The notes under the pieces: model-generated
Database searches by the model: none
Told to the model about the DNA's origin: nothing
The model's input: the letters and a program-made list of their open reading frames with translations, nothing else
Shown: positions 8,339 through 26,165 of the stretch, one piece after another
Position numbering within the stretch: position 1 is the stretch's first letter
Layout: each line of letters starts with the position of its first letter
Program-made: the position numbers and the translations under genes
Assembly (NCBI RefSeq): GCF_000158175.1
Contig: NZ_DS999411.1
Location: forward strand, 1,484,702 to 1,526,428
Direction: 5' to 3'
DNA: 41,727 nt
Source of the DNA: Luminiphilus syltensis NOR5-1B
GTDB taxonomy: Bacteria > Pseudomonadota > Gammaproteobacteria > Pseudomonadales > Halieaceae

Positions 8339-9045
8339 ATGAATACCTACAAGCGCCACAGATTCCCGCCTGACATCATCAGCTACGCCGTCTGGCTGTA
8401 CTTTCGTTTCAATCTAAGCCACCGCGATATTGAAGACCTTCTGGCTGAGCGAGGAATCATCGTCAGCCGCGAGGCGATCCGACTGTGGCGCATTAAGTTT
8501 GGGGCCATTTATACCCGCCGGCTGAAACGAAATCACACAGGATACGGCGACACTTTCTACATTGATGAAGTCTTCGTGAAAATCAACGGTAAGCAGCACT
8601 TCCTGTGGCGAGCTGTAGACCAAGATGGCGAGGTCGTTGATGTGTATCTTCAAGCGAAGCGTGATGGGGTGGCAGCCAAACGCTTCTTTAAGCGCCTGTT
8701 ACGAAGCCACGGAACAGAGCCAAGAAAAATAGTGACAGACAAACTACGCAGCTATGGCGTTGCCCATCGAGAACTGATTCCTGACACGATCCATAGCACC
8801 GAGCAGTATGAGAATAACCGGGCTGAGCAATCACAGGGTCTGCCCCGCTTCATGGGTATGAGGCGACCAGGGTGAGGGAGCGGGGGATGCGTAACTTCAA
8901 GTCGGTAAGGCAGGCTCAGAGATTTCTCGGTGTCCATGCTGCCGTGTCTAATCTATTCAATTTGGGAAGGCACTTGGTCAAGGCAAAGCATTATCGGGAT
9001 CTGAGGATCAGTGCATTCAATGAATGGAGTAGGGCGGTTGCTTGA
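8339..9045 (+). pseudogene. IS6-family transposase with 23-bp frameshifting insert (copy B)
   Basis: From ATG 8339, 178 residues read correctly through the helix-turn-helix region, YIDEVFVKI (first Asp), VTDKLRSYG (second Asp) and ENNRAEQS. A 23-bp insert at 8836-8858 then shifts the frame and translation ends at a TGA at 8873-8875, before the catalytic Glu. The missing part is still present in another frame (RERGMRNFKSVRQAQRF ... EWSRAVA) to the TGA at 9043-9045. Unless the ribosome skips or shifts, the product lacks the DDE glutamate. Confidence 0.85.
8836..8858 (+). repeat. 23-bp hairpin insert, copy 1
   Basis: Inserted between ...TCACA and TGAGG of the transposase gene. It starts GGGTC and holds GCCC and GGGT, which can pair around an 8-nt CGCTTCAT segment. 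Close relatives are at 18631-18653 and 24999-25021. Confidence 0.8.
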
Positions 9046-9129
9046 CTCTGGAGGCCAATAACTGCTGGTCTGGAAAAGTTAACTTGTCTGAACCGAAAAA
9101 AGCCAAGCTTCCTTGGTGCGACTTCGATA

Positions 9130-10623
9130 TTACTCACACTTTACGATTCCGTTATCGTAATCGAGTCGGCTCAGTTCATTTGTTTCTGGCGATCGCAGCC
9201 CAAACAACAGCCGAGTTCTTGCCTCAATGCTGCCTAGGAGGGCATTGCCAAGCGCCAATGCAGAGCTGGCGGCTTTATCAGAGTATTCAGTGAGATACTT
9301 AAGTGCCAATTCCTCGTGTCCGCTGTCGAAAAGAGCATTTGAAGTCTGTTCCACAGAGACCGTATCTGCGATGAGCTGATCTTCAAATGCAGTGAGTGCC
9401 TCAGTCACTTCCGGAAGGAATTTTTCAGGGTGGTCACAAGTAAAGTACATGAGGCGTTTGAAGGAGCGCCCGGCAAATTCCGTTGCTTCCTGAATTTGCC
9501 AATCGGGCGTTACAAATCGAGTGGCTTCGCCTTTGGTCAGATATCGATGCTTACCAAACTCCATGGGAATGCTCTGAACGCCAATTCGGTAGGGAACGAA
9601 GGGAGTGGTTATCGACCCAGTCGCCGCCACCCAAAGGGTTCGATTCTCTGGTCGCACGCCCGCACGAAGATGCGCAACCTGACCGTAACCTGTTGTGTCT
9701 TTTGAGAGGCGCGGATCGCGTACCGCATCTAACATTTGCCTTAGACTGATTGGGGCGGACTGCCTAAGTTCCTGCTCCAACTCGTCCCTCGGATATTGTG
9801 CAAAATCCTCTCCGTAGACCGCCGTTACATTGAATGGCTCTCCCGCATCAGGATCGAACCAGCCTTGCTCAACGGCGAATTCAATGAAATTTTGAGATCC
9901 CATGTAGTTGGGGTCTTCTTGAAAGTTCAGTGGGATGTTTCCTATGTCACCGGGGTATGAAACGCGGATTTCATCTGGCCCAAGTCGTTGTGCGATCCAT
10001 AATCCCTTCCCCCCTGCAAAATTAATCAGGACCCAGCCTTCATTTTCATCTGCAAACATGTGGGAATTGCCGCCATACGTTGAGTACCCATACTCATCAA
10101 TCAGCTTACCCACGATCTCAACTGCCTCGCGAGCGGAGCGGGCGCGCTCCATCGCAATGCGAGACAAATCGCTGTAGCTCGGCCCTGTCTGGGGGTTTGG
10201 CGTCATCGCAATGAGCTCTGGGCGTGAAGGCGACCAGACGTCACGACCAGCAACGTTGTTTTCGTTCAATCCTCCATTGGTTATGGGAGGAGGAAAGCCC
10301 TCATAGTCCGAATAATTCATCGTGAGGTAGCGAAAGGTCCGCAACGCTTGAGGAATCTGAATATATTTCCCCGGCATATTTGCGGTCTCGTCGACCCCAA
10401 CCTTTATTGTGGTACCCGCCGGAAAGCGATCGGCCGGAACAACCTCAAGCCAGTGACTCGATACCTCGTCTCCCGATCCGCCTATAAGCACACTGCCATC
10501 ATCTGTAAGGTTTTTGCCGACATAGATCGCATAGCTCGCGTGCGAAATGGTAGGAGTTAGTGTTAGTAGTGCTAAAAACACGACGACAACGGCAGATTTG
10601 TGCGCTAACTTTTTGCTCGCCAT
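9130..10623 (-). CDS. Secreted C69-family (Ntn) dipeptidase homologue lacking the usual Cys
   Basis: 497 residues from ATG 10623, chosen because AAGAAGGG lies 8 nt upstream; a longer frame reaches 10692 without such a site. Signal peptide at residues 1-29 (AVVVVFLALLTLTPTISHA). The body resembles peptidase family C69/PF03577: YVGKNLTDDGSVLIGGSGDEVSSHW, then GGNSHMFADENEGWVLINFAGGKGLWIAQRL and the conserved GDIGNIPL and GYGQVAHLR regions. In that family the mature protein starts with a catalytic Cys; here the first residue after the predicted cleavage site is Ser30 (A-S-Y-A-I-Y). It may be inactive, use Ser as nucleophile, or form a binding subgroup. The gene ends 36 bp from IS copy B; no operon partner is evident. 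Confidence 0.8.
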   Translation of the reverse strand: MASKKLAHKSAVVVVFLALLTLTPTISHASYAIYVGKNLTDDGSVLIGGSGDEVSSHWLEVVPADRFPAGTTIKVGVDETANMPGKYIQIPQALRTFRYLTMNYSDYEGFPPPITNGGLNENNVAGRDVWSPSRPELIAMTPNPQTGPSYSDLSRIAMERARSAREAVEIVGKLIDEYGYSTYGGNSHMFADENEGWVLINFAGGKGLWIAQRLGPDEIRVSYPGDIGNIPLNFQEDPNYMGSQNFIEFAVEQGWFDPDAGEPFNVTAVYGEDFAQYPRDELEQELRQSAPISLRQMLDAVRDPRLSKDTTGYGQVAHLRAGVRPENRTLWVAATGSITTPFVPYRIGVQSIPMEFGKHRYLTKGEATRFVTPDWQIQEATEFAGRSFKRLMYFTCDHPEKFLPEVTEALTAFEDQLIADTVSVEQTSNALFDSGHEELALKYLTEYSDKAASSALALGNALLGSIEARTRLLFGLRSPETNELSRLDYDNGIVKCE

Positions 10624-10857
10624 TTTTGTAACCCTTCTTAATGATCGATAGTTAATGAACAACGGCTTAGGTTCATGAAGCCGTGCGATCAAATATTTAT
10701 TACAGCTTGACCGTCTCTTGCGTAACGCCGCACAAAGGACACTTTTTACCGCAACGAACCCGGCACATTGTGCCGCAGTAAAGGCTAGCGAAGAGCCGGT
10801 GGATGACCCTGAAAACGCCAGGCTGGTAGCAACACCGTGTCTTAGCGCTTCGCAAAT

Positions 10858-12735
10858 TTAGCCGAGGACTTCATTCACCGAACGTAAAGCGGCATCAATC
10901 GCAGCGTGAACGTAGGCATAAGCTTCCGAGTCGGAATTGGCGATACTGATTCGACCAATAGGTCTCCGGCCAATTTCGTGGGGTGCCTGCCCTGGCTCCC
11001 ACTTGGGATCGTGTAGATCCAGATACTCATAGGCGTAACCATGCGACCAGCGATTGACTGTTATCGCCGCAATGTCGGTGTTGGCGTTAAAGCCGAATTG
11101 GCCGAACATCCCATCGAGTTGAGCGCGTATTTCTGACTCGTAGTCGGAGAACGGTGTGGCGAGAATCCGATGCCTGCCGAGCCGGTAAAGCTCTCTCGCC
11201 GACTGCCCCGGATCTCCCTCGGGTGTTGGCACATGACCCATAAAACACACCATAGGTTCTTCCTGGTCGTCGGGTGGCTGGTAATCGCCGAGCGTCACCG
11301 GAGGGGCGTGGGATACAAGCTCGAAGAAACTACCGGGGCACTGGTAAACGGAGGCACCGCCCTGCCTGATGGCAGCGCCTGACTTCAGCAAAACGTTGGC
11401 CCAAATGAAGGGCGCCTTCACGCCGTAGGTGAGATTCCCCTTTTGCACTTCGGGTAGTTCGGGGCACAGGTGGGGAATCATTCCGTTGTAACCCGCTAGA
11501 ATACAACGCCTGCCTCGCACTGTATAAGCCTTGCCCTCCGTTACGTACGAGACATCCACCACGTCCCCATCGACATTGACAGCATGTACAGCGGTGCTGT
11601 TCAGGCGAATACGCACAAGGGACGTGTCGGCATCAAGTTGCGAGTAGTCGAATTTCGCCGCGGCAATATCGGTCATGGAATCACCCGATGCGATGGAGGG
11701 GATCAGTTTTCTTACCAGCAATCGGGCGACTGAGGCATTGCCATCAGGAAACATTGGGTTGCGGGCGGCGTTTTCGCTCTCGGGATCATCGGGCGCTACC
11801 ATCGAGTCAGGCAGCCCCACCGAATAAAGCCCGGGTGCTCCCAGCTTCAGTGCTTCGCTGACGGACACTGCCTCGATACCGACGCCAAAAATAGCTCGAA
11901 TGATCGGTTCATAAAGCCTGGCGCCCAGTGGCGATAGTCCAACCTTTTCCGTAAGAAATTGAGCGTAGCTCGTCTGATGCAGATAATGGTCCAACTCCGC
12001 TATATCCAGACCGGGAAGAAAATTTGAGTCCCCCGAGATTAAACTGACCAGCGCCGGTTTGTCGCTGGCGGGAATATTCAGGGATTCAATCGCCGCGGTG
12101 ACATCACCTTCGTCCAATAGTGCTTTTGCCCAGGCCTCGTTTATCAGCTGCGGTTTTCCGTACTGCGCCTCGCTGAGGTATAGGCCGTAGGGCGCGGTAC
12201 CATTACTGAGTAAATAGTTGTCAGGGCCTGCGTGCTGAAGCGCCTCAAAATCAATACCAATCTCCTCCAGCAGTCCATGAGCGGCCTCACTCATTGCGGC
12301 CTCTTCAAGATTGATACTGCCACCAAAGCTCAGGAGCATTCGCCCCTTGATATGAAACTCGTTGCGCTTGGCGTGACCGCCGAAATCATCGTGATTGTCG
12401 AGCACCAGGATTTTCGCACCGGTCCCCGCTCGCTTTCCGTAAGCGTACGCGGCAGCGAGGCCGCTGATACCGGCGCCAACAACCACGAGATCGAATTCCT
12501 CGTCGATGCGCTGGTAGGCTACTGGGCGCTTGCCTTCTCTCGCCAGCGCATGCGCGACTTCATAGGAACCATCATGGCTGCCGCGCATACCGGTGAGTAT
12601 CGGCGGGTAGTATGCGGCGGTGCCCGGTCTTACTGTTGAAGTTTGTGCCCGTGATGCAAAAGGGGCGAGCGCGGCACCGGCTACTGACAGCGCGATGCCG
12701 TCGAGGAAGTCACGTCTCGTTATTTTATTACTCAT
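10858..12735 (-). CDS. Tat-exported FAD-dependent oxidoreductase, spermidine-dehydrogenase-like
   Basis: 625 residues. Twin-arginine signal RRDFLDG at residues 7-13, followed by a hydrophobic stretch ending near residue 30. FAD-binding Rossmann motif VVVGAGISGLAAAYAYG at 84-100, followed by LVLDNHDDFGGHAKRNEF (acidic end of beta-2 plus the GGH loop). The C-terminal end (RISIANSDSEAYAYVHAAIDAALRSV) is the usual second FAD contact. The overall look, including the RRDFLDG start and the early QRIDEEFDLVVVGAG, resembles Pseudomonas spermidine dehydrogenase SpdH; substrate assignment is tentative, and a general amine oxidase-like flavoprotein is the alternative. Start ATG 12735 has GAGGAG 9 nt upstream. 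It acts in the periplasm if Tat export is correct. Probably monocistronic; 234 bp separate it from the next gene. Confidence 0.8.
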   Translation of the reverse strand: MSNKITRRDFLDGIALSVAGAALAPFASRAQTSTVRPGTAAYYPPILTGMRGSHDGSYEVAHALAREGKRPVAYQRIDEEFDLVVVGAGISGLAAAYAYGKRAGTGAKILVLDNHDDFGGHAKRNEFHIKGRMLLSFGGSINLEEAAMSEAAHGLLEEIGIDFEALQHAGPDNYLLSNGTAPYGLYLSEAQYGKPQLINEAWAKALLDEGDVTAAIESLNIPASDKPALVSLISGDSNFLPGLDIAELDHYLHQTSYAQFLTEKVGLSPLGARLYEPIIRAIFGVGIEAVSVSEALKLGAPGLYSVGLPDSMVAPDDPESENAARNPMFPDGNASVARLLVRKLIPSIASGDSMTDIAAAKFDYSQLDADTSLVRIRLNSTAVHAVNVDGDVVDVSYVTEGKAYTVRGRRCILAGYNGMIPHLCPELPEVQKGNLTYGVKAPFIWANVLLKSGAAIRQGGASVYQCPGSFFELVSHAPPVTLGDYQPPDDQEEPMVCFMGHVPTPEGDPGQSARELYRLGRHRILATPFSDYESEIRAQLDGMFGQFGFNANTDIAAITVNRWSHGYAYEYLDLHDPKWEPGQAPHEIGRRPIGRISIANSDSEAYAYVHAAIDAALRSVNEVLG

Positions 12736-13071
12736 TGATGATTACTCCTCTGCGCCTACTCAGGCGTTTTTCCACAACAATCAATTCGCGATAGAACGGT
12801 ATGTGCCAGCTTTTGGTGCTGCCCCAACGCTCCATGAAGCGATTAAACCTGAAATATCGAGATTGCAATCAAGAACCGAAGCAGCGCACTGAGGCCTGCG
12901 TCTATATCGATATCTTACAGTGTTGCCCGGCCTCTATGAGGTTTGCTCACCTTTTATCAGTTAATGCTTGCGCAGAGGGGTTCGGCGAGTCTCTTGCATT
13001 TCGATGTGTCGACTAAATGTCCTTCGCGTAGTGCTTTATGTTCAACCGTTCTTCTTTTCTTGCTTTAGCAA
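12736..13071. other. Intergenic, 336 bp, no gene seen
   Basis: This lies between the flavoprotein start and the integrase remnant. I see only the ribosome-binding site of the flavoprotein gene (GAGGAG near 12750) and no convincing reading frame, terminator or repeat. Confidence 0.4.
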
Positions 13072-14352
13072 CTATTCCTTTATTGGAGCGCTACTCCCAA
13101 TAAGCTTATATGTTTCCGTGCCGCGAAGCTGCTTTCTCGCATTTAGTACTTTTAAGTGGCTGCAGTGTTTTTCAATCATTATGACGCTTGTCCCCATTTG
13201 TACAGCCAATGTATGCACAGGCACTTTGTCGTATGTCAGAGCAAATGTCGCATATGTGTGTCGTAAGCTGTATAGCACACGCTTTTGGTTTGTAATCGGA
13301 AAAATTCGTAATTCCATAAATTAAAGTAGCGAATCGAATAGCTTTGCAAATGACGTTGGTTCGATACCAGTCTTGGTTCGAATTACATAATGTTCATTGT
13401 CCGCGCGAATCACGTGCGACAAGGGGTGTAGAACACGACCTTTTCCAGAAAAGTTCCTACGAGCGATGCGTGTCAAAGCTTTGATACTTCGTTTGTTCGC
13501 TATGATTGTCCGCCTCCCCGTTTTCCCGCTAACGTTTATTTCGAGGTGCGCATTGATGTCGTGTTGTTGTTTTTGCGCATTGTCATATTCGTCGCTGCTA
13601 AGAGCGTCTACACCTTCTTCGCCTAGCTCGGCGGCTGTATATGCATCACTAGTTTTTTCGGTTTCTGGTGCTATGTGGTACTTAATCTGATTCCATTTAA
13701 GCTGCATTAGCTCGACACCTGGTCTTGCGCCTGTGTCTAGCAGTAACTCGATATAATCCCCTAGCAGCTGTCGTAGCTCGAGGCTTTTCTCTTTCGTAGC
13801 CGCAGCGATCCATTCCTCTATCCCTTCGAGTAAGAGGTTGATTTCTTCCAATGAAAAGTCTGGTCGCCTTTTCCTTGTTACACCAACAGCTTTCAGTGGA
13901 GGTCGATTTGAGCTCGTCAAAAAGCCCCTTATCACGGCTTCGTCAAAAACTTTATTCAGAGCGGCGTTATGAGAGGCGATAGTGCTGCGAGTAGGTGCTT
14001 TTTGCATGATTGCCGCACGTTTCGCGTTAAGCTCTTGAAGTGCTTGTTCGTCGATACTCGTGATCTTTTGGTGTTTGAAGGTCGGTATTAGATATAGGTT
14101 GATTGCTTGTATGTACTCCGAGTAACTGTTTTTGCCGTTCCCTAGTGCGATCTCATCGTTCATGCGCTTGATGGCGAGTTTCGCGATATCGCTAAAGCGC
14201 CGTGTGATAGTCGGGAGGTTATCGCGCTGCCGTATCTTCGCCTCGAGGTATAACTCCTTCGCACTTTCAATGGCTTCATCACGATTGCGTTTCTTCGTAG
14301 AGACTCGCTGCCATGTGCCGTCAATGCCGTACCTGCATTGCCAAATTGTGCT
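13072..14352 (-). pseudogene. Tyrosine recombinase/integrase, inactivated
   Basis: The minus-strand frame runs from about 14350 (IWQCRYGIDGTWQRVSTKKR..., an N-terminal arm-binding-like region) through a core-binding region (YSEYIQAINLYLIPTFKHQKI) and the catalytic domain with GARPG (first Arg) and LRHTYAT (second HxxR-type motif). Three defects are visible. The 5' end is cut by dispersed repeat R copy 2. An in-frame TAA (13321-13323) sits between FDSLL and FMELRIF, with the frame unchanged on either side. The expected catalytic Tyr motif HYSHL reads HCSHL, so the nucleophile is Cys. Known relatives are integrases of genomic islands and prophages. An independent reading of the two halves as functional proteins is unlikely. 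Confidence 0.85.
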
Positions 14353-14443
14353 GGCTCTCCATCATTAAAAGGGACACCGGCATTCATTAAACTGAATTTG
14401 CGAAGTTCGTTTAATGGAGAGAACACCCGATGTCCCACGCAGG
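14353..14443 (+). repeat. Dispersed repeat R, copy 2
   Basis: Full-length copy of about 91 bp: GGCTCTCCATC start, GGGACACCGGCATTCAT block, GAATTTGCGAAG block, CGTTTAATGGA block, and GATGTCCCACGCAGG at the end. It lies exactly where the integrase remnant loses its 5' end and about 140 bp 3' of the glycine-rich secreted protein gene. Confidence 0.7.
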
Positions 14444-14583
14444 TTTGACACGGTACCTTCCCGAACTGGAGGTTGACCCCTAAACGCTGGCAAGCAACAG
14501 ATCGGCTATCTCATCAGGCGCCCAGATAGCCCCTTTGACGCCCTTCGCGGACCATGGGGTATCCGCCAGCCAGGCGCCAGAAG

Positions 14584-16422
14584 TCAGCGAAAAACATTCC
14601 GTTGCCTACGAAAACGAAACGCCAGTAAAAGCATTGACATTGCCAAAATCATGTACGCCCACACAGGGAGTGCTGGAATCGGTGTGGAAAAGGGGACTAC
14701 TGCCGTCACCGGATCCGTAATTGAGTCATTGACGATTCCGTCCGAGTCCAGGGGGCCGCCATCTTCGATGGAGTAGGTGATCGTATCGCCACTGACAACA
14801 GCACCCGGTATCGCGGTCCATACACCCGCCGCACTTCGCTTGTAGGCAACGCTTCCCGCTGGCAACGGATTTCCAAATTTCGCTGAGATCTGTACCGGGC
14901 TACCGCACCCATCAATTTGGAAGGCGAGCTGCGTTGGGAATGGAACGCCAGGAGCACCAACGGTCGAGACTGCTGACCCAGTAACGGGACCATTGAATGC
15001 GCAAGTGCGGTCTACGCCACTCAATACAATTCCGACACCACTACCCCCGGCATCGCCATTATCCCCAATACCGTCGCCATCACTATCGACGCTTTCAACT
15101 GGATCTTCTGGGAACTCATCTACCGAATCAAAGACGCCATCACCATCAGAATCCGGATCTGGAGGAGAGGGAATAACTATTGGCGTTGGATCATTCTCGC
15201 CAGCTTCATCTGGGTTGCCATTTCCGTTCGGATCGGGGTCCACACCATCGTCAGAGGTGTCGTTGGTTGTGTTGGATGGGCCTTCGGCGCTGGCTTCCGC
15301 TTGATTGGAAAATGGTCCCGACAGGCCATTAGGTGAGAACTGTACCGTAAAAGAAACCTGCGCGAACGCACCAATTGCCAGGCTTGAAGACCCGGCCATC
15401 AAAAGATTAGTGTCGCCATCCCCATCAAAACCCGCATTGGTGGTCAAGGTTCCGGTCGCGATCGGACCAGACGACACGGTAAAGGTTGCAGGAGCGGGGA
15501 ATGTCGTGGAGAGAACATCGGCAACCTGCACATTGCTCAGCGCCACATCACCAAGATTTTCAACAATCAGGGTGATGTCTGTTTGATAAACCCCGCTTCC
15601 AACACTGCTTACCGCACCCGCTTGCTTGGCGAGCCCTATTACGGGTGAGGATGCCGAGGCGGTATAGGTGATCTGAATTTCGCCATTTCCTGCTCTGACG
15701 CCTGCAGTAGTGGAGCCATTGGCCAGACCCTGTATGTAGGACGATCCGCCGCCACCGCCACGACAGTTACCACTGCCGCCTCCGCCATACCAGCCGCCGC
15801 CGCCGCCATAGCCTTCACAGCCGCAACCGACGCCTGCTGTAGTACCTCCAAAACCAAAACCGCCTGCCACAATTGGGTTGTTCAAAGAGCGACAAGTACC
15901 ATTCGCACTAGCCGTTTGGGTTCCACCGCCACCTCCAGGGTTAAACGATAGTCTGGATCCATCTCCTCCAGTCAACCCACCGCCAACGCCTCCGATGACA
16001 TTTTGCCCATTCCACTCACCGCCGCCACCGCCGCCACCGGCTACAATTACACGGTCGCTAAGGGTATTGCCGGCAGTTCGCACATCAGACGCACCACCCC
16101 CACCGGCCCCAAGGCTATCGCCGGCCCCGCCCCCATTGAACCCGCCCTGCTCGCCAGAGGGCTGTCCACCAACATAAATATTTAGAACATCCCCCGGTGA
16201 AACGGAGAGATCACCCTTGGCATAGCCGCCAAGGTTGTCTGTAACAGGGTCACTCATACCTCCCTGGGCACCCCATGCCTCAATAGTGACGGAGGTAACA
16301 CCTGTAGGAACGACGAAGGTTTCTGCCGCTCCCGTATAAGTGTAAGTATCAGTGACGCCGAAAGCAGAACCAGCGCACAGCGCTAAACCTGTCAGGAAAT
16401 ATCTTGCCTTTGACATACCCAT
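14584..16422 (-). CDS. Secreted glycine-rich, DUF11, choice-of-anchor U protein with IPTL-like tail
   Basis: About 612 residues from ATG 16422 (GGAG 7 nt upstream; a GTG directly before it is possible). Signal peptide within residues 1-23. About 24-255 is a glycine-rich domain (FVVPTGVTSVTIEAWGAQGG opening, then many GGGG runs with scattered Cys), of the type seen in bacterial Gly_rich proteins. About 262-390 is a DUF11-like unit (LIVENLGDVALSNVQVADVL). About 415-465 holds acidic DSDGDG repeats that probably bind calcium. About 468-575 is a choice-of-anchor U-type domain (CAFNGPV ... YSIEDGGPLDSDG). The end, PIPALPVWAYMILAMSMLLLAF plus RFRRQRN, is an IPTL-like sorting tail. A shared architecture with the proteins at 3943 and 32294 points to a surface-protein family sorted by a common enzyme. 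Confidence 0.85.
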   Translation of the reverse strand: MGMSKARYFLTGLALCAGSAFGVTDTYTYTGAAETFVVPTGVTSVTIEAWGAQGGMSDPVTDNLGGYAKGDLSVSPGDVLNIYVGGQPSGEQGGFNGGGAGDSLGAGGGGASDVRTAGNTLSDRVIVAGGGGGGGEWNGQNVIGGVGGGLTGGDGSRLSFNPGGGGGTQTASANGTCRSLNNPIVAGGFGFGGTTAGVGCGCEGYGGGGGWYGGGGSGNCRGGGGGSSYIQGLANGSTTAGVRAGNGEIQITYTASASSPVIGLAKQAGAVSSVGSGVYQTDITLIVENLGDVALSNVQVADVLSTTFPAPATFTVSSGPIATGTLTTNAGFDGDGDTNLLMAGSSSLAIGAFAQVSFTVQFSPNGLSGPFSNQAEASAEGPSNTTNDTSDDGVDPDPNGNGNPDEAGENDPTPIVIPSPPDPDSDGDGVFDSVDEFPEDPVESVDSDGDGIGDNGDAGGSGVGIVLSGVDRTCAFNGPVTGSAVSTVGAPGVPFPTQLAFQIDGCGSPVQISAKFGNPLPAGSVAYKRSAAGVWTAIPGAVVSGDTITYSIEDGGPLDSDGIVNDSITDPVTAVVPFSTPIPALPVWAYMILAMSMLLLAFRFRRQRNVFR

Positions 16423-16497
16423 CACTTGACTCCGCCCAACGTTATTTCATTTCTGAGTAGCGAAGCAGGTTGTCACACCACTTGTCAACGACTGGCC

Positions 16498-16588: not shown

Positions 16589-16656
16589 CACCCACCGACC
16601 CGCAGTCGGCTGTTAAAACCTATGTGGCAGGAAGGGACACAGCGCTCCCCTGAAAA

Positions 16657-18076: not shown

Positions 18077-18268
18077 GATACTGGCAAGTCAACTGACCCT
18101 GTTCGGTAGACTCCGCGCATGGATACTTATAAACGCCACCGATTTCCACCCGAAATTATCAGTTATGCAGTTTGGCTCTACTACCGCTTCAATCTAAGCC
18201 ACCGGGATATTGAAGATCTCTTGGCTGAGCGCGGCATCACTGTCAGCCGCGAAGCGATTCGCCTTTGG

Positions 18269-18304
18269 TACCCAAAGCACTCGCTACGCTCATGGGGTAG
18301 GCCC
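18269..18304 (+). repeat. 36-bp in-frame insert in IS6-family transposase (copy C)
   Basis: Identical in position and sequence to the insert at 3531-3566, adding 12 residues between the helix-turn-helix region and the catalytic domain. Confidence 0.8.
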
Positions 18305-18630
18305 TGCATCAAGTTCGGCACTATTTATGCGCGGAGATTGAGACGAAAACACCGTGGCTACGGCGATACCTTCTACATTGATGAAGTCTTCGTGGGGATC
18401 AACGGTAAGCAGCATTATCTTTGGCGGGCAGTTGATCAGGACGGCGAAGTCGTTGACGGGTATCTACAAGCTAAGCGCTTCTTCAAACGCCTGTTGCGAA
18501 GCTACGGAGGAGCGCCCAGGAAAATCATTACAGACAAACTGCGTAGTTATGGTGTTGCTCATCGAGAACTGATTCCTGACACGATCCATAGCACCGAGCA
18601 GTATGAGAATAACCGGGCTGAGCAATCACA

Positions 18631-18653
18631 GAGTCTGCCCCGCTTTATGGGCA
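18631..18653 (+). repeat. 23-bp hairpin insert, copy 2
   Basis: Inserted between ...TCACA and TGAGG. It starts GAGTC and contains TGCCC and GGGCA, a perfect 5-bp stem around an 8-nt loop (CGCTTTAT). It differs from copy 1 at three positions. Confidence 0.8.
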
Positions 18654-18941
18654 TGAGGCGACCAGGTTGAGGGAGCGAGCAATGCGGCGATTCAAGTCGA
18701 TGAAGCAGGCGCAGCGATTTGTTACTGCCCACGCTGCTGTGTCTAATCTCTTCAATCTGGGCAGACACCTTCTGCGAGCTCAGCATTATCGAGATCTCAG
18801 GACAAGTGCGTTTGAAGAATGGAATAGAGCGGTTACTTGAGATGAACGAGCGGATTTCTGCATTCTGCCTGAGTTAACTTGGCAGAACCGAGCCGAGCTG
18901 TGGCTTCAGGTAGTGGACTAGATTTTCATCGAATTAGCGAA

Positions 18942-18958: not shown

Positions 18959-18976
18959 CTTTTGTGGCCTATCTTG

Positions 18977-19255
18977 TTAATCGTCTTCTTTTTGTTCTTT
19001 GTCGTCGTTATCGTCTTTGTCATTGCCGAGACGTTTGCCCTGTTTGCCGCGGACCCCGTCGCGAACTTCCTCTTGCTTGCAGTCGCGCTTGTCTTTGCCA
19101 ACTCGGCCTTCATCTTGCCGACAGTCACGCCGGTCTTGTCTTTCATCGGAACGGCCGCGTTCCTCACGTCGCTCTTGCCGGTCATCTCCATTTGCGTAGG
19201 CTGGGACCTGAGCGAAGCTGAGTAGCATTAACGCGGCAATTATCTTTTTATTCAT
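18977..19255 (-). CDS. Small secreted, highly charged protein
   Basis: About 92 residues from ATG 19255, with GGAG about 10 nt upstream. A short signal peptide (residues about 1-21, IIAALMLLSFAQVPAYA) is followed by a mature part made almost wholly of Arg, Lys, Asp, Glu and Gln (DDRQERREERGRSDERQD..., ending DKEQKEDD). I do not recognise a family. The alternating charge suggests a disordered, perhaps metal- or polyanion-binding protein. The opposite strand also stays open and reads as a very hydrophobic peptide, but it has no good start site; the signal peptide plus ribosome-binding site favour this strand. It is divergent from the DUF1254 gene at 19582. Confidence 0.6.
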   Translation of the reverse strand: MNKKIIAALMLLSFAQVPAYANGDDRQERREERGRSDERQDRRDCRQDEGRVGKDKRDCKQEEVRDGVRGKQGKRLGNDKDDNDDKEQKEDD

Positions 19256-19258
19256 CAC

Positions 19259-19581
19259 TGTTTATCTCCAATACAAAAGTTCGCTTCCATTGTTACGCAG
19301 CGAGTAGCGCTTAGTTCGAACCCTGCTTTCTAGGAAGCGACAAAGCGTTCTCTAAGGCCAGCAGCTACTAAAGGTCCACATTACAATGTAAACTTCGTGC
19401 AGTCTATTAACAGGTTTGGTTTCTGCCGATCAGTGCCGAAACCTCAGTAGGAGTTCATTTGCAGAATGGATCACGGTGGTAGCCGTAACTCCGGCAAAAT
19501 GGCTTTTGGCTTTGAAAAATGTAATTTCGCAGCAGTTCTGCCCTTCAGAAAAAGTGATGTTTGTCCGAGGAGAGTCCACTG
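19259..19581. other. Divergent intergenic region, 323 bp
   Basis: It separates the charged secreted protein (minus) from the DUF1254 row (plus) and must hold both promoters. I see a small inverted repeat TTAC-AAT-GTAA at 19381-19391, a possible regulator site, and GAGGAGAG at 19566-19573 as the ribosome-binding site for 19582. No further gene is seen. Confidence 0.4.
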
Positions 19582-21081
19582 ATGATACGCCTAACCGCTA
19601 TAACGGTAATAGCATTAGCCGCCGCCGTCGCCCCTGCGTATGGGGAGGTAACGTCTAATCAGCTCGAGGCGATCTCCATCCCCGACAAGGTTCAGACCGC
19701 GATCGGTACGCTGGAATTCTTTGACGGGGTTCCGACCGACGACACCGTCGCTACCGTCTATGACAATCTCGACCGCATGCGCGGCATGCAGGTATTCCTC
19801 GACAATATCGGTGCTGTGTCTATGTACACCGTGCGCGAGGGCCTGGCCGATGCCGGCGCCAGGGGCGCGAACCGGATCGCCCTTTTTGCGGAGTTGATGG
19901 ATTCCCAGACCCTCGTGGTCACGGCCAACACGTCGACGCTCTACGCCTATACCTATACCGATCTTGCCGAGGATGGCCCAACTGTAATCGAGGTCCCGCC
20001 CGGGATGCTGGGTTTTCTCAACGACGCCTGGCAGCGGTTTGTCGGCAACATGGGCGTCACCGGGCCGGATCGGGGCAAGGGTGGCAAATACCTTGTCGTG
20101 CCTCCGGGCTATACTGGCGACATACCTGACGGGTATTTCCTGCTCAAACCCCCGACTAACCGGAACTTCCTATTCCTGCGTGGCTCGATCGCGAAGGGGC
20201 TTGATCCTGCCGTCAAGAACATCACCGCCAACCTCAAGGTCTATCCGCTGAAAGATGATGCAAGCCCGGTCGAAACCGCATTTCAAAACGTATCGAAAAA
20301 GGCATTCAATACCGTTTTCCCCAGTGACTACAGCTATTTCGAGATTCTGAACCAGATCATTCAGGAAGAACCGATCGATGCGATCGACCCCGAAGTGCGC
20401 GGCTCGATTGCGGCAATAGGGATCGCCAAAGGTCAGCCATTTGCCCCCGATGAGCGCATGAAAAAGCTGCTGACCGAGGCTGCGACACTGGCCAATGCCA
20501 CAGCACGTGCCATCACTTACCAACCCCGTATCGACGGCGTGCGGATATATCCGGACAATCCAGAAAGCGTCTGGTCCACCGCCTTTGCCAACAAGAATAC
20601 GAGCTTCGAGGCGGACGGAACGATGAATCTCGATGCACGGGTAGTCTATTACTTCAATGCAGGTGGCGTGACGCCGGCGATGGCTACCACGAAGGCCGGC
20701 GCGGGTTCGGATTACGCCCTGGCCTTTCTTGACGCCAACCAGCAGGCGTTCGACGGTGCGAAGACCTACAAGCTCACTCTACCCAAGGATGTTCCGGTCA
20801 AGGACTTCTGGGCGGTCACGCTGTACGACACCCAGACTCGCTCGCAGCTCCAGACCGGGCAGCCATATCCGACCATCGGCAGTCAGACCAACGGCATGAC
20901 CGCGAATGCCGACGGCTCCTATGACATCTACTTCGGTCCGAAGGCGCCGGAAGGCAAAGAAGGCAATTGGCTCCAGAGTGTTCCGGGCAAGAGCTGGTTC
21001 ACGATCCTGCGCATGTACGGCCCGCTCGAGTCCTGGATCGACCAGAGCTGGCGCCCCGGCGAGATCGAGTTGGTCAAATAA
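19582..21081 (+). CDS. Exported DUF1254/DUF1214 protein, first of three
   Basis: 499 residues from ATG 19582; GAGGAGAG upstream decides this start over a TTG at 19561. Signal peptide at about 1-21 (ITVIALAAAVAPAYG). The N-terminal half is DUF1254 (NTSTLYAYTYTDLAEDGPTVIEVPPGMLGFLNDAWQR, GKGGKYLVVPPGY). The C-terminal half is DUF1214 (NTSFEADGTMNLDARVVYYFNAGGVTPAM, DFWAVTLYDTQTRS, GSYDIYFGPKAPEGKEGNWLQSVPGKSWFTILRMYGP). The family is widespread and periplasmic; I know of no settled enzymatic role. Its paralogue follows 31 bp downstream and shares a 72-bp identical 3' tract. Confidence 0.9.
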   Translation: MIRLTAITVIALAAAVAPAYGEVTSNQLEAISIPDKVQTAIGTLEFFDGVPTDDTVATVYDNLDRMRGMQVFLDNIGAVSMYTVREGLADAGARGANRIALFAELMDSQTLVVTANTSTLYAYTYTDLAEDGPTVIEVPPGMLGFLNDAWQRFVGNMGVTGPDRGKGGKYLVVPPGYTGDIPDGYFLLKPPTNRNFLFLRGSIAKGLDPAVKNITANLKVYPLKDDASPVETAFQNVSKKAFNTVFPSDYSYFEILNQIIQEEPIDAIDPEVRGSIAAIGIAKGQPFAPDERMKKLLTEAATLANATARAITYQPRIDGVRIYPDNPESVWSTAFANKNTSFEADGTMNLDARVVYYFNAGGVTPAMATTKAGAGSDYALAFLDANQQAFDGAKTYKLTLPKDVPVKDFWAVTLYDTQTRSQLQTGQPYPTIGSQTNGMTANADGSYDIYFGPKAPEGKEGNWLQSVPGKSWFTILRMYGPLESWIDQSWRPGEIELVK

Positions 21082-21112
21082 TCATGCAGCGTCATATTTC
21101 AGGGGAAGGGTC

Positions 21113-22615
21113 ATGATTTGCCGGTTGTTTTTCGTAACTGCATTTCTTGCATTTTTTGCTGGAGTTGCGGCGTCTGCACAGGTCTCAGACGCCGAACTGG
21201 ACGCGATCTCGATTCCCGCAAAGGTCGAGACAAGCATCGGCACGCTAGAATTTTTCGACGGCGTGCCGACCGATGCCACGATCAACAAGCTATACGACAA
21301 TCTCGACCGGATGCGGGGCGTCGAGGTTTATCTGAACAACCATGGAGCCGCATCACTCAACGCCATGCGTATCGGCAATGCCGGCATAGGTGCCGATGCA
21401 TCCAACAAGGTCACCATTACCGAACAGCTCCTGAAGCCTGCATCGCTCTATCTGACCGGCAACACGTCGACCCTGTATGCGCTTACCTACCTGGACCTGA
21501 AAACCGATGGACCGCTGGTTGTCGAACTGCCTCCCGGCATGTTGGGATTCCTGGATGATGCCTGGTTCCGCTTCATCGCCAACCTCGGCGTGATCGGCCC
21601 GGACATGGGCAAGGGGGGCAAGTATCTGTTGCTTCCTCCGGGCTACAGCGGTGAGGAGCCTGAGGGATACTTTACCGTCAAGCTCCCCACCTACAACAAT
21701 CTGATGTTCCTGCGCGGCTCCATCGCCAACGGGCTGGAGCCCGCGGTTGCGAACATCAAGTCGAAGCTCCGAATCTACCCGCTCGCCAAAGCAGGCGACC
21801 CTCCTGCCACCGAGTTCATTAATATTTCCGGCAAGAGCTACAGCACCATCGTCACCCGTGACATTAGCTTTTTCGAGGATCTCAGCGAGCTGGTCCAGGT
21901 CGAACCGATCGATGCGATCGGTCCCGAAATGCGCGGACAACTGGCCGCAATCGGCATCGTCAAAGGCAAACCGTTCAACCCCGATGCCCGCATGAAAAAG
22001 CTGCTGAACGAAGCGGCGACAATTGGGAACGCCACCGCTCGCGCCATTACCTACCAGCCGCGAATCGATGGTGTCTTCATCTATCCCGACACGAACAGCG
22101 CCTGGACGATGGCTTACGCCAACAAGAACACGTCCTTTGAAGCAGATGGAGCGATGGGCATGGACGCGCGACCGCTGTTCTACTTCAACGCGACTGGCGT
22201 TACACCTGCCATGGCGACGACGACCCCGGGAGCAGGCTCCGACTACGCCCTGGCCTATCTGGATGCGGACATGAAGCCCTTGGACGGCGCGAAGACCTAC
22301 AGACTTCGGCTGCCGTCCAATGTGCCAGTCAACAACTTCTGGGCGGTCACGCTCTACGACACCCAGACGCGCTCACTGCTGCAAACCAGTCAGACGTTTC
22401 CCACCGTCGGCAGCCAGGACGAAGGTATCCGAAAAAATCCGGATGGCTCCTATGATCTCTACTTTGCGCCAGAGCCGCCCGAAGGCAAGGAGGGCAATTG
22501 GCTCCAGACTGGTCCGGGCAAGAGCTGGTTCACGATCCTGCGCATGTACGGCCCGCTCGAGTCCTGGATCGACCAGAGCTGGCGACCCGGCGAAATCGAG
22601 TTGGTGACCGACTGA
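21113..22615 (+). CDS. Exported DUF1254/DUF1214 protein, second of three
   Basis: 500 residues from ATG 21113 (AGGGGAAGGG just upstream); a longer open frame back to 20906 only overlaps the previous gene. Signal peptide at about 1-21 (FFVTAFLAFFAGVAASA). Domain order and motifs match the preceding gene nearly residue for residue (ELDAISIPAKVETSIGTLEFFDGVPTD, then GKGGKYLLLPPGYSG, then NTSFEADGAMGMDARPLFYFNATGVTPAM), so the two are tandem duplicates. Positions 22513-22584 are identical to 20982-21053, a sign of recent gene conversion in otherwise diverged genes. Likely one transcript with 19582. Confidence 0.9.
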   Translation: MICRLFFVTAFLAFFAGVAASAQVSDAELDAISIPAKVETSIGTLEFFDGVPTDATINKLYDNLDRMRGVEVYLNNHGAASLNAMRIGNAGIGADASNKVTITEQLLKPASLYLTGNTSTLYALTYLDLKTDGPLVVELPPGMLGFLDDAWFRFIANLGVIGPDMGKGGKYLLLPPGYSGEEPEGYFTVKLPTYNNLMFLRGSIANGLEPAVANIKSKLRIYPLAKAGDPPATEFINISGKSYSTIVTRDISFFEDLSELVQVEPIDAIGPEMRGQLAAIGIVKGKPFNPDARMKKLLNEAATIGNATARAITYQPRIDGVFIYPDTNSAWTMAYANKNTSFEADGAMGMDARPLFYFNATGVTPAMATTTPGAGSDYALAYLDADMKPLDGAKTYRLRLPSNVPVNNFWAVTLYDTQTRSLLQTSQTFPTVGSQDEGIRKNPDGSYDLYFAPEPPEGKEGNWLQTGPGKSWFTILRMYGPLESWIDQSWRPGEIELVTD

Positions 22616-22689
22616 ACCAACCCGATAGAAATTAACCACACCAAAATCACTATGAAAATCAACCTGTCAATTATCAAAGGGACGAACTC

Positions 22690-24246
22690 ATGAAACAGTC
22701 GGATAACCCGGACGTCGTTGCAAGCGCCAGCATTCTTGGTGGCCTCGGAACACCTCGTAAGTGGGTGCTGATGCAATCGGCGAAAAGAATGATTGTCAAT
22801 CTGGCTGTTGCCACTTCGTTTATAGGTGTCGCGGTCAGCGCGCAGAGCGCCCAAGCGCCATCGCTTAAAGAGGCCGAAGCCGTGGCCGAGCAGGCCTATA
22901 TCTATGGCCTGCAACAGGCGATTTATTATGGTCAGCGCTGGACATACACCCAGAATGATACCGAGGACAACATCGTCTATGCAGGCCTGAACCAGTTTTC
23001 CTGGGTGCGTAAGCAGATCACGCCCGACTACCCAGTGGTAACGCCGAACGCGACCACGCTTTATGGCGCCGGTTTTCTTGATCTACGCGCGGGTCCAGTC
23101 GTTATCGAAGTGCCCGAGATCACCGACCGTTATTTCAGTGTCCAGATCATGGATCAGTACGGCATTTTCCGGATGATCGTCGGCTCGCCCTTCAATGGTA
23201 CCCAGGCGCGCAAATATATTCTGGTGCCGCCAGGTTTTACCGGTAATGTCCCCGCCGATTTCCCGACCACCGACATCGTGCAATGGCCGGCCTTCACCGC
23301 TTATGGTGTTGTGCGGATGGCCAACAAAACCGGGACCGATGCTGAGATTAATATCATCAACGGATATCAGGATCAGGTGACCATCACGCCACTAGCCGAC
23401 TGGCTGGCCAATGGCAAAAAGGGTATCCCTCAGGCCGACAGAAAAATCGTCAAGGGCGATTTCCTCATTCCCGATGGTTTGCCTGAATATCAGTTCGGCC
23501 AGGTCGACAAACAGACCGCCGAGCAATATTTCACCCTGCTCAGTGTCATCCTGAACGATCCGACCATGCCAACGTTGAAGGATTCGGTCATGGAGGCCGA
23601 CATGCTCAAGCAGCTTGAGACATTCAACATCGGCAAGGGCCTGAGCTTTGACTGGGCCGAACTGACAGCCGACCAGCAAACTGCAATCGAGGCCGGGTTC
23701 AAGGCCGGGTTTGAAAACGTCCGCAAGACGCTAAAGACCAACATGATCAATATGAATGGCTGGGGAGTTGTGCGCAATGATGGTGGCTTTGAAACCCGCT
23801 GGATGGACCGCGCGATCATTGCCGATGCAGCCTGGGCGGCACCAGACAAGAACATCTCACATGGTGGTGCGTTCCTGTTCACCGATTCCGAAGGCAAGCC
23901 GCTGTCTGGCGCGAACAAATACACCTTAACCTTCGACATGAACGATCTACCGCCTGTCACGCAGTTCTGGTCTATCCCAATCTACAGCTCCGACGGGTAT
24001 TTCGTGGCTAATGAGATCAACCGCTACACTATCAACAGCTTCATGTTGGAATCGGGTGAACTCACGGCCAAGGATGGCGAGTTGGTGATCTATATCCAGA
24101 ACGATAAGCCATCTGATCCGGAAAAGGCCAAGAACTGGCTTCCGGCGGCGGCCAAAGGGTTTCGCTTTACCGCGCGCTTTTATGGCCCATACGCTCCGAT
24201 CGTGGACGGAACGTATGACATGCCCAAAGTGGTTGAGGTGGAATAA
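22690..24246 (+). CDS. DUF1254/DUF1214 protein, third of three, diverged
   Basis: Up to 518 residues from ATG 22690 (GGGACG upstream). The signal-like segment (MIVNLAVATSFIGVAVSAQSAQA) only begins near residue 33, so a downstream start, for example Met28, is possible. The DUF1254 part (QAYIYGLQQAIYYGQRW ... TPNATTLYGAGFLDLRAGPVVIEVPEITDRYFSVQIMDQYG) and the DUF1214 part (FLFTDSEGKPLSGANKYTLTFD, TQFWSIPIYSSDGYFV, NWLPAAAKGFRFTARFYGP) are the classic form of the family; it is only distantly related to the two upstream genes. It ends 12 bp before an IS6-family inverted-repeat remnant. Confidence 0.9.
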   Translation: MKQSDNPDVVASASILGGLGTPRKWVLMQSAKRMIVNLAVATSFIGVAVSAQSAQAPSLKEAEAVAEQAYIYGLQQAIYYGQRWTYTQNDTEDNIVYAGLNQFSWVRKQITPDYPVVTPNATTLYGAGFLDLRAGPVVIEVPEITDRYFSVQIMDQYGIFRMIVGSPFNGTQARKYILVPPGFTGNVPADFPTTDIVQWPAFTAYGVVRMANKTGTDAEINIINGYQDQVTITPLADWLANGKKGIPQADRKIVKGDFLIPDGLPEYQFGQVDKQTAEQYFTLLSVILNDPTMPTLKDSVMEADMLKQLETFNIGKGLSFDWAELTADQQTAIEAGFKAGFENVRKTLKTNMINMNGWGVVRNDGGFETRWMDRAIIADAAWAAPDKNISHGGAFLFTDSEGKPLSGANKYTLTFDMNDLPPVTQFWSIPIYSSDGYFVANEINRYTINSFMLESGELTAKDGELVIYIQNDKPSDPEKAKNWLPAAAKGFRFTARFYGPYAPIVDGTYDMPKVVEVE

Positions 24247-24257
24247 GTCTCCGGCAA

Positions 24258-24274
24258 GGTATTACCAAGTAAAG
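24258..24274 (+). repeat. IS6-family inverted-repeat remnant
   Basis: GGTATTACCAAGTAAAG resembles the left end of copy B (GATACTGCCAAGTAAAG). No transposase follows; dispersed repeat R copy 4 begins directly after it. Confidence 0.45.
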
Positions 24275-24365
24275 GGTTCTTCATCATAAACGGGGGACAC
24301 CGGCATTCATTAACCTGAATTTGCGAAGCCCGTTTAAAGGAAAGAACAAAAATATCCCACGCAGG
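24275..24365 (+). repeat. Dispersed repeat R, copy 4
   Basis: Full-length copy of about 91 bp: GGTTCTTCATCATAAACGG start, GGACACCGGCATTCATTAAC, GAATTTGCGAAG, CGTTTAAAGGA and a TCCCACGCAGG end. It lies 28 bp 3' of the third DUF1254 gene. Confidence 0.7.
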
Positions 24366-24401
24366 ATTACTACTGCGGCGGGTTCTCCAAAAGGGACGGT
24401 C

Positions 24402-24746
24402 TCACGCAATCTCGTCATCCAGTAACGGGCCATCGACACAATCCTGAATGAGACTGTGCAGGCGGAAGTCGCACCAATTCTTGAAAAGTTCCAATGACCG
24501 GTCTTGCGGCCAGAGAGTCGGATCGACGTACCACTCGTGGAGAAGGTTCTCGAACACTGGGAGGTAGCACAACTCCAGCCATTCCTCAAAGTGCTCACTG
24601 GCGCAGTCGTGAATCAAGTAGGCCGGCGAGTCTTCGTTCGCGCTGTCCAGGGTCACCAGGAGCCCATCCGAGTCAGGATCGGCTTCGTTGACCCAGTCGA
24701 CGAAGGGCTTCTTGTACCGGATGATAAGCAGATCGCGATTCAGCAT
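24402..24746 (-). CDS. Conserved small hypothetical protein
   Basis: 114 residues from ATG 24746 with GAGGT 6 nt upstream. The protein opens MLNRDLLIIRYKKPFVDWVNEADP and is acidic and rich in Trp, Asp and Glu (EEWLELCYLPVFENLLHEWYVDPTLWPQDRSLELFKNWCDF). I believe close relatives occur as hypothetical proteins in other proteobacteria, but I know no function. No signal peptide or membrane segment, so cytoplasmic. It stands alone between a dispersed repeat and the IS481-type element. Confidence 0.75.
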   Translation of the reverse strand: MLNRDLLIIRYKKPFVDWVNEADPDSDGLLVTLDSANEDSPAYLIHDCASEHFEEWLELCYLPVFENLLHEWYVDPTLWPQDRSLELFKNWCDFRLHSLIQDCVDGPLLDDEIA

Positions 24747-24969
24747 GGCGTGACCTCGATGGGTGCCCCCGGAGTGGTCGATGTAACGATGTTATCTTAT
24801 CCGCGCTGGAAACAATTCACCTACCGACTCAAGTCTATGAGTCAGCGCTCGGAGTCGGCTGGCGAACCTTATAGAAAACCTATAAAAATCATGTGAGTAG
24901 CGAGACATAGGCTACACAATATACCGGAGACATGGTTTACACATTAAGGCATTTGGAGGAGGACTCCCG

Positions 24970-26165
24970 ATGCCGTGGAAGGAGTGTAAACCGATGGAGG
25001 GCCTGCCCCTGTTTATGGGCATGAACGACTCAGGTTCGTAGCTCGTCTTCTTGATGGCGAGCAGATGTCAGCCCTTTGCAAGGAGTTTGGAATTTCCAGA
25101 CCCACGGGCTACAAGATCTACAATCGATACAAGGAGCTAGGCCCCAAGGGACTCGAGGATCGGAGCCGAAGGCCCTACAGGCATGCTAATAAACTACCGT
25201 TTCAGATCGAGCGAGCAATTCTCGCGATCAAGCGGGAGTACCCGTCCTGGGGCGCGCCCAAGATCCGAGAGAAGCTGATCAAGCAATTTCCGATGGTGAA
25301 TCCGCCGGCCAAGAGCACGGTGCACGCCATTCTCGATCGTAATGGTCTGGTAAAGCGCCAGAAGCGTCGGCGCCGAAAAGCGCAGGGCACAGCGCTGAGT
25401 GAAGCTACCGTACCGAACGGGCTGTGGTGTGCGGATTATAAGGGTGAGTTTCTACTGGGTAACCGTCAGTACTGTTACCCACTGACGATCACTGACTATC
25501 GCTCACGATATCTCCTAGCCTGCGAAGGCCTCGACTCCACCAAGTCGGCACTTGCCTTCAATGTCTTCGAACACGCCTTCAAGGAGTATGGTTTGCCGCA
25601 GGCCATTCGGACCGACAACGGCATCCCGTTTGCCTCGCCCAACGCATTCTTCGGACTGAGCCGGCTGTCAATCTGGTGGCTTAAGCTAGGCATTAACATT
25701 GAGCGCATCAAGCCAGGCCACCCAGAGCAAAACGGGCGTCATGAGCGTATGCATCTGACACTGAAGAAAGAAGCAACGAAGCCTGCTTCCTTCAATTTCT
25801 TACAACAGCAGGGTCGCTTCGACAGATTTATAGAGGTTTACAACAACGAGAGGCCCCATCAGGCACTTGGCGGGCAATATCCTGCAGAAGTATTTACACC
25901 TTCTGTGCGGGAATACCGGCCTGCCGAAGAGCCCCTGTACCCATTCCACGACAAAGCTGTGAAGGTCACCAAGTGCGGACGCATTTGCATGGGCCACCGT
26001 AAGATCAACCTCAGCATCGTGTTCAGCGGTCAGGTCGTGGGGGTACGCGAAGTTGCTGACAAAATTTGGCTGGTCAGCTTTATGGATTTTGATCTAGGAT
26101 TCTTTGACGAGGATTGTGGAAGGGTCGAGCCCGCCACCAATCCCTTTTTACCGGCAACGGTGTAA
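24970..26165 (+). pseudogene. IS481-type transposase with 23-bp insert near its start
   Basis: The native start is ATG 24970 (MPWKECKPM, GGAGGAGG upstream). A 23-bp insert (24999-25021) breaks the frame after nine codons. Beyond it the frame resumes as ERLRFVARLLDGEQMSALCKEFGISRPTGYK and runs intact to 26165. From the next in-frame ATG (25065), 366 residues remain: a helix-turn-helix (GISRPTGYKIYNRY), a second DNA-binding segment with the basic run KRQKRRRRKAQG, and the rve-type DDE core with WCADYKGEF (Asp), IRTDNGIPFAS (Asp) and HPEQNGRHERMH (Glu). The ATG at 25065 has only a weak ribosome-binding site, so activity depends on this shortened start or on frame recovery. Confidence 0.8.
24999..25021 (+). 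repeat. 23-bp hairpin insert, copy 3
   Basis: Inserted between ATGGA and TGAACGA of the IS481-type transposase gene. It contains TGCCC and GGGCA, a perfect 5-bp stem around CTGTTTAT. It clearly resembles the two inserts in IS6-family copies although the host gene is unrelated. Confidence 0.75.

What the first reader, a model, noticed from the sequence alone, without database searches (positions are those of the whole stretch)
8836..25021. A 23-bp hairpin-forming insert found in transposase genes of two unrelated families
Seen directly: inserts at 8836-8858 and 18631-18653 (IS6-family copies B and C) and 24999-25021 (IS481-type). All three are 23 bp, start with a purine-rich GRG, contain a CTGCCC block, can form a 5-bp stem (TGCCC/GGGCA; 4 bp plus one G-T-type pair in copy 1) around an 8-nt loop, and sit just before a TGA of the host gene (A|TGAGG or A|TGAACGA). 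IS lengths confirm the size exactly: intact copy D is 775 bp, copy B 798 (775+23), copy C 813 (775+36+23-21). Each insert shifts the reading frame near a critical point, removing the DDE glutamate or the N-terminus. Established knowledge: small palindromic elements inserting in genes are known (for example Rickettsia palindromic elements), and hairpin inserts bypassed by ribosomes are known in phage T4 gene 60 and some yeast mitochondria. Inference: this may be a tiny mobile element or a scar left by one, possibly tuned to silence transposases.
Basis: partly seen in the sequence, partly recalled or inferred. Interest (0 to 1): 0.8.

Follow-up and report, generated by a model that had tools for sequence, protein, structure and literature searches.

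The report
Tiny hairpin elements nesting in hairpins
The three 23-letter inserts are real copies of a very small hairpin-shaped mobile repeat found in one family of marine bacteria, which lands at a short preferred site, often inside older hairpin repeats, and seems to ride along in transposon genes rather than being aimed at them.

Summary
All three 23-bp inserts are at the stated coordinates, and uninterrupted relatives show the empty sites (IS481 GGA^TGA; IS6 CA^YGA). They are not chance: a model of the insert finds copies in 42 of 140 genomes of the host family (inferred to be Halieaceae), up to 26 per genome; at order level a stricter pattern hits 7 of 18 family genomes and 1 of 372 others. 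There are 23-, 24- and 36-bp forms with the same ends; the 36-bp insert in copies A and C is the same element reversed. The preferred target is GGA^YG. Outside the transposase genes tested, 12 of 39 independent sites lie in the loop of an older hairpin (control 44 of 1609), including loops of GTAG-type repeats. Of 128 filled sites sampled, 40 are in those transposase genes, so "tuned to silence transposases" is not supported, although all 9 copies found in this genome sit in IS genes or remnants. Recombination between IS6 copies and transposition of an interrupted IS481 explain the window. Best reading: a non-autonomous, REP-like micro-element. Single-strand mobilisation by a Y1 (RAYT-type) enzyme is inferred, not shown: this genome had no Y1 match, and no full-length copy was found beside 43 Y1 genes.

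The parts
8836..8858 (+). 23-bp element in IS6 copy B, between CACA and TGAGG
   Evidence: exact sequence; model R1 35.4 bits; empty site in copy D and other IS6 copies
18631..18653 (+). 23-bp element in IS6 copy C, same site as in B
   Evidence: R1 38.2 bits; flanking 60 nt 98% identical to B, so the same event by recombination
24999..25021 (+). 23-bp element in the N-terminal part of the IS481 transposase gene, between ATGGA and TGAACG
   Evidence: R1 38.6 bits; empty site in 19 loci with relatives, two of which overlap
3531..3566 (-). 36-bp form of the element in truncated IS6 copy A
   Evidence: pattern search, exact position
18269..18304 (-). 36-bp form of the element in IS6 copy C
   Evidence: pattern search, alignment insert of 36 nt, exact position
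8339..9042 (+). IS6 copy B transposase gene, interrupted by the 23-mer, no other stop or frameshift
   Evidence: DDE_Tnp_IS240 on the piece before the insert
18119..18837 (+). IS6 copy C transposase gene, mosaic, carries a 36-mer and a 23-mer
31341..32021 (+). IS6 copy D, uninterrupted transposase gene used as reference
24892..26211 (+). IS481 element carrying the 23-mer; a second copy elsewhere in the genome shares this block with one mismatch
   Evidence: rve and LZ_Tnp_IS481

Best explanation
The inserts are copies of a non-autonomous, REP-like micro-element: tag GRGYC, a 5-bp stem TGCCC/GGGYA and a variable loop that gives 23-, 24- and 36-bp forms. Shown: clean insertion at A^Y sites (preferred GGA^YG) without target duplication; scattered occurrence across one bacterial family with forms that recur within a genome; and, outside transposase genes, enrichment in the apical loops of older hairpins, including GTAG-type repeats. 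Shown for this window: one insert moved between IS6 copies by recombination, and the interrupted IS481 transposed after insertion. Inferred: it moves as folded single-stranded DNA, cut and joined after an A at both ends by an HUH Y1 (RAYT-type) enzyme acting in trans; in this genome it is only a passenger of IS elements.
For: Empty and filled sites. Spread: 21 of 140 family genomes with a reversed-pattern control of 0; 42 of 140 by model; 12 of 140 for the 36-bp form, 44 of 140 together. Target: A at -1 in 48 of 55 sites, Y at +1 in 51, G at +2 in 33. Loops: 12 of 39 sites outside transposase genes against 44 of 1609 controls. Mosaic copy C, duplicated IS481. Y1 genes: outside the home genus in 22 of 38 element-positive and 11 of 45 element-negative genomes, p 0.003, with no such link for the Y2_Tnp control, p 0.83.
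Against: No Y1_Tnp match in this genome and none in several carriers (G012, G013, G047, G052). In 43 of 45 Y1 neighbourhoods the only model matches were one partial of 19.1 bits (about 170 nt upstream of a Y1 match) and one of 13 bits. The Y1 link falls to z 2.2 with genome size in the model and is not corrected for kinship. No guide-like match between tag and target is evident. None of the 16 sites in transposase genes is in a loop of a 6-bp stem. Base-pair covariation is weak. Constant insert type at a given IS site fits inheritance, so the number of independent insertions is uncertain.
Confidence: 0.55

Rival explanations
1. The same mobile hairpin family, but moved by something other than a Y1 enzyme: an unknown recombinase, or polymerase template switching between folded single strands.
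For: No copy of full length found beside Y1 genes; carriers without a Y1 match; preference for hairpin loops.
Against: Y1 association outside the home genus; a sharp target preference and fixed ends suit an enzyme better than random template switching.
Confidence: 0.32
2. The insert is skipped during translation (like T4 gene 60 or yeast mitochondrial byp elements, both recalled), so host transposases stay functional.
For: An IS481 with the frame-shifting insert transposed recently, and no insert-free copy was found in the genome at E 1e-40. Copies B and C have no other lesion.
Against: 11 of 15 insert-bearing IS6 copies have other lesions against 21 of 66 without (the comparison is biased because the uninserted set comes largely from a search that favours intact copies). 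Most sampled sites are outside the transposase genes tested. An internal ATG at 25065 opens 366 aa, and transposition in trans is possible.
Confidence: 0.06
3. The insert is an adaptation that silences transposases.
For: All 9 copies found in this genome lie in IS genes or remnants.
Against: 88 of 128 sampled sites do not match those genes; an interrupted IS481 has moved; three IS91 genes stay open with the 23-mer in frame.
Confidence: 0.03
4. The 23 bp is a native, variable segment of these IS lineages or a chance match.
For: At IS6 nt 494 the insert type is nearly constant among copies, as descent would give.
Against: Empty sites in relatives; the same sequence in unrelated transposases and between genes; reversed-pattern control 0 in 140 genomes.
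Confidence: 0.02

Closest known systems
REP elements of RAYT/TnpA-REP systems (GTAG and CGTC families)
   Same: 20-40 bp, unpaired tag at one end plus short stem-loop, many copies, mostly between genes but also inside genes (PMC3733652: abstract, outline and Results parts 1 and 3 read). A Marinomonas REP has a 5-bp stem, a TTTA loop and cutting at CT and CA (PMC8266576: passages read).
   Different: Tag is GRGYC, not GTAG or CGTC; no full-length copy found beside Y1 genes; sits inside loops of GTAG-type repeats; few dimers seen, tandem pairs in G119.
GC clusters of yeast mitochondria
   Same: Very small palindromic mobile DNA, exchange by recombination, merging of palindromes (PMC4478555: abstract and outline read).
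   Different: Bacterial, other sequence, target GGA^YG.
Insertion sequences that target REPs
   Same: REPs act as insertion sites (PMC1525189: abstract and outline read).
   Different: Here the inserted piece is 23-36 bp and encodes nothing.
Rickettsia and Wolbachia palindromic elements
   Same: Palindromic inserts inside genes (PMC3733652 Results part 3 names RPE; otherwise recalled).
   Different: Other hosts and sequence; I did not compare sequences.
Bypassed inserts (T4 gene 60, byp elements; recalled)
   Same: Short hairpin-bearing insert in a coding gene.
   Different: No sign of bypass here; insert-bearing IS6 copies are mostly decayed.

Membership tests
REP (GTAG or CGTC families) | GTAG or CGTC tag next to the stem | tested here: not met
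   tag is GRGYC in nearly all of 35 distinct 23-mers; columns 1, 3 and 5 invariant G, G, C
REP (GTAG or CGTC families) | short palindrome of 20-40 bp in many copies per genome | tested here: met
   23-36 bp, up to 26 model matches in a genome; fewer than the over 100 copies usual for REPs (abstract start of PMC2817692)
REP mobilised by RAYT | copies flanking a RAYT gene | tested here: not met
   43 of 45 Y1 matches examined: one partial match of 19.1 bits and one of 13 bits
REP mobilised by RAYT | single-strand cutting by the cognate Y1 enzyme | not testable with these tools
   needs purified protein
REP mobilised by RAYT | carriers have a Y1 gene | tested here: inconclusive
   22 of 42 model-positive genomes have a Y1 match, 11 of 98 others; this genome has none
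MITE of a DDE transposon | terminal inverted repeats and target-site duplication | tested here: not met
   only an internal 5-bp stem; empty and filled sites show no duplication
Bypassed (byp-like) insert | host gene otherwise intact and under selection on both sides | tested here: inconclusive
   IS6 11 of 15 with other lesions; IS481 intact otherwise and transposed
Described RNA family (Rfam) | match above a curated threshold | tested here: not met
   0 matches in the window

The most novel reading that the evidence does not exclude
A distinct class of micro-transposon: a 23-36 nt single-stranded DNA hairpin, cut after an A at both ends by an unidentified enzyme, that prefers to enter the apical loops of other folded repeats, so that hairpins grow by nesting (the 36-bp form may itself be a shorter one with an inner hairpin); and the interrupted IS481 is still expressed across or past its insert.
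Probability: 0.15. Interest if true: 0.75.

Novelty: new variant of a known kind. Interest (0 to 1): 0.5.

Why it matters
It would be among the smallest mobile DNA in bacteria, with borders, target and subfamilies readable from sequence alone. The loop preference offers a simple, testable route by which hairpin repeats gain variable inner hairpins, a feature described for some REP families (PMC3733652, Results part 1). It also warns that a frame-breaking hairpin in an IS gene can be a passenger and need not be regulation.

Tried and rejected
Rejected: chance (reversed-pattern control 0 in 140 genomes); a native IS segment. Not accepted as proof: the IS6 tree, on which inserted copies are scattered, because copies are mosaics. 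Led nowhere: Rfam (no match); viral contigs with two exact patterns (no match); base-by-base cross-tables of tag against target (nothing evident by eye). Literature: seven searches; their listings showed no description of this family, and six 17-mers of it are in no held paper; only open-licence papers are held. PMC12306157 was seen in passages only.

Not done: search for a longer parent element with the same ends; comparison of strains of one species; replication-strand bias; annotation of non-transposase host genes; correction for kinship.

The 128 filled sites are those in loci that I fetched, chosen mostly among the best matches, and are no census; the 55 independent sites come from my own clustering rule. 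The transposase count is a lower bound: for example L099 (G013) has a 23-mer at the same position in a short IS481-like remnant, so that position was filled in a second genus, and the test did not count it. The Y1 test counted two genomes with only the 36-bp form (G046, G054, both with Y1 matches) as negative; moving them gives p 0.0003.
Full report
OBSERVATION. Copy B is 704 nt against 681 nt for the ORF of copy D, and copy C is 719 nt. A covariance model (R1) built from 35 distinct 23-mers, these three among them, scores them 38.6, 38.2 and 35.4 bits; the next window match has 13.9 bits. The stem pairs are formed in 97.7% of cells, but covariation is weak: one double change in one pair.

EMPTY SITES. 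In IS481, 2 loci carry the insert and 19 (two of them overlapping) do not, of 30 fetched; the other 9 do not cover the site or failed my test pattern. A same-genus copy (G071), 88.6% identical over 1,216 bp, reads ATGGAT-GAACGA where the window reads ATGGA-[23]-TGAACGA. A Rhizobium plasmid copy is also uninterrupted. One IS481-like remnant of another genus (L099, G013) is filled at the same position. In IS6, 10 of 91 aligned copies have the 23-mer at nt 494; five have a 36-mer at nt 150 (reverse strand); two have a 36-mer and one a 28-mer at nt 286; one has a 23-mer at nt 52. In genome G119 an intergenic repeat occurs with and without the element: CACATGGA^TGTGCGC. There the element's last base is G, pairing with C at position 6, so the final A seen elsewhere belongs to the element and is not a target duplication.

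THE FAMILY. Pattern search: 21 of 140 genomes of the family, 0 with the reversed pattern. Model search: 42 of 140 genomes, 18 of 28 genera, up to 26 matches per genome. Order-level sample of 390 genomes with a stricter pattern: 8 with a match, 7 of them among 18 genomes of the family and one, with a mismatch, among 372 others; the reversed pattern matched once in one genome. The 36-bp form: 12 of 140 genomes, 18 copies in the single-contig genome G054; 44 of 140 genomes hold one form or another. Particular forms recur within genomes: 36-mers in G054, TTTTCGGG or TTTTTCGGG loops in G036, TCT and TGT loops in G119. Two exact patterns found nothing in viral contigs.

TARGET. Over 55 independent filled sites: A at -1 in 48, Y at +1 in 51, G at +2 in 33, G at -2 in 32, G at -3 in 33. 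With flanks joined to show the empty site, the junction lies in or at the edge of the loop of a perfect stem of at least 6 bp in 12 of 55 sites, against 60 of 3300 A^Y controls. Split by host: 12 of 39 outside the transposase genes tested (control GA^YG in the same loci 44 of 1609) and 0 of 16 inside them. Examples: GCGCAT(gg)ATGCGC, GTGGCGAC(acgac)GTCGCCAC, GGCCGA(gttcat)TCGGCC. The last has GTAG before its stem, and 13 TGTAGGG copies lie around a Y1 gene of the same genome, G036, that scores 106.5 bits against the REP-associated transposase model (cut-off 80). So GTAG-type REPs appear to exist there, and this element is a different one nested in their loops.

HOSTS. Of 128 distinct filled sites in the loci that I fetched, 40 lie in or within 60 nt of IS6 (20), IS91 (16), IS3 (3) or IS481 (1) transposase genes; 88 do not match them. 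Pfam confirms DDE_Tnp_IS240, rve with LZ_Tnp_IS481, Zn_Tnp_IS91 with Y2_Tnp, and HTH_Tnp_1; the piece that I took for IS3 OrfB gave no match, so that label is mine. In this genome all seven 23-mers and both 36-mers are in IS genes or remnants: IS481 twice, IS6 B and C, two IS6 N-terminal remnants, one IS3 OrfA, 36-mers in IS6 A and C. So here the element arrived, or survives, as a passenger. The insert can be tolerated: of eight IS91 copies with the N-terminal 23-mer that my test could read (of nine tried), five have it in frame with the upstream ATG, and three of these have open frames of 509-515 aa.

SPREAD INSIDE THE WINDOW. Copy C is a mosaic. Over nt 421-480, next to the insert site, it is 98% identical to B; in the other eleven windows 67-85%. 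From nt 541 on it is 93-100% identical to D. The inserts in B and C are therefore most simply one event moved by recombination. The two IS481 copies share 1,320 bp with one synonymous mismatch and have different flanks; no uninterrupted copy was found in the genome at E 1e-40. So the interrupted IS481 transposed after the insertion, by its own product (perhaps from the ATG at 25065, 366 aa) or in trans.

FUNCTION OF INTERRUPTED GENES. 11 of 15 IS6 copies with inserts of this family have other stops or frameshifts, against 21 of 66 without inserts; ten copies with only other small inserts (5 affected) are counted apart. The uninserted copies come largely from a search that favours intact ones, so this contrast is biased. 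Pooled pN/pS upstream of the insert is 0.36 among ten inserted and 0.09 among twelve chosen intact copies; downstream 0.24 and 0.20; pS is near saturation. The downstream values alone would fit continued selection, but most of that divergence probably predates the inserts. Nothing here shows bypass in IS6; the IS481 remains open.

MECHANISM. An unpaired 5' tag, a short stem-loop and clean insertion after an A fit what TnpA-REP enzymes act on; PMC8266576 (passages) describes a Marinomonas REP with a 5-bp stem, a TTTA loop and cutting at CT and CA. Y1_Tnp matches occur in 33 of 140 genomes. Outside the home genus they are in 22 of 38 element-positive and 11 of 45 element-negative genomes (p 0.003), while the Y2_Tnp control shows no link (p 0.83); with genome size in the model z is 2.2. 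The four genomes with most matches (G033, G119, G053, G036) have Y1 genes; G047, G052, G012, G013 and this genome have no match. G054, rich in 36-mers, has only a weak partial Y1 match. Of 45 Y1 matches, 43 neighbourhoods were searched, and the only model matches were a partial one of 19.1 bits and one of 13 bits. I hold the Y1 route as likely but unproven, and do not file the element as a GTAG or CGTC REP.

VERDICT. A real family of hairpin micro-elements of a known kind, not described in what my seven literature searches listed, with a notable nesting habit. The transposase link of the finding is largely a passenger effect.

Noticed in passing
IS6 copies L231, L236, L237, L181, L255, L260, L204, L190, L207, L168, L182: A second class of 12-16-bp inserts recurs at nt 21, 77, 242 and 530 of the IS6 gene (and one near 494) in several lineages; those at 242 and 530 share TGYCGGACCAT in opposite orientation.
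   Followed up: partly
loci of G054, G119 and G052: An intergenic multi-hairpin repeat with CATGGATG loops (around GAGCCCCCATGGATGGGTTCACGGCGTGTC) serves as host for many elements.
   Followed up: partly
L060, L021: Short head-to-tail arrays of the element, each unit directly next to the other.
   Followed up: no
window 19561-24246: Three neighbouring genes with DUF1254 and DUF1214 domains.
   Followed up: no
window 26226-26300: Just after the IS481 lies a stretch that by eye resembles part of a reversed tRNA; ARAGORN reports no tRNA in the window.
   Followed up: partly
L017, left of the second IS481 copy: The second IS481 copy seems to lie beside a tRNA-like sequence (by eye).
   Followed up: no
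window 14587-16425 minus: A protein with a match to the ALK/LTK glycine-rich domain, unusual for a bacterium.
   Followed up: no
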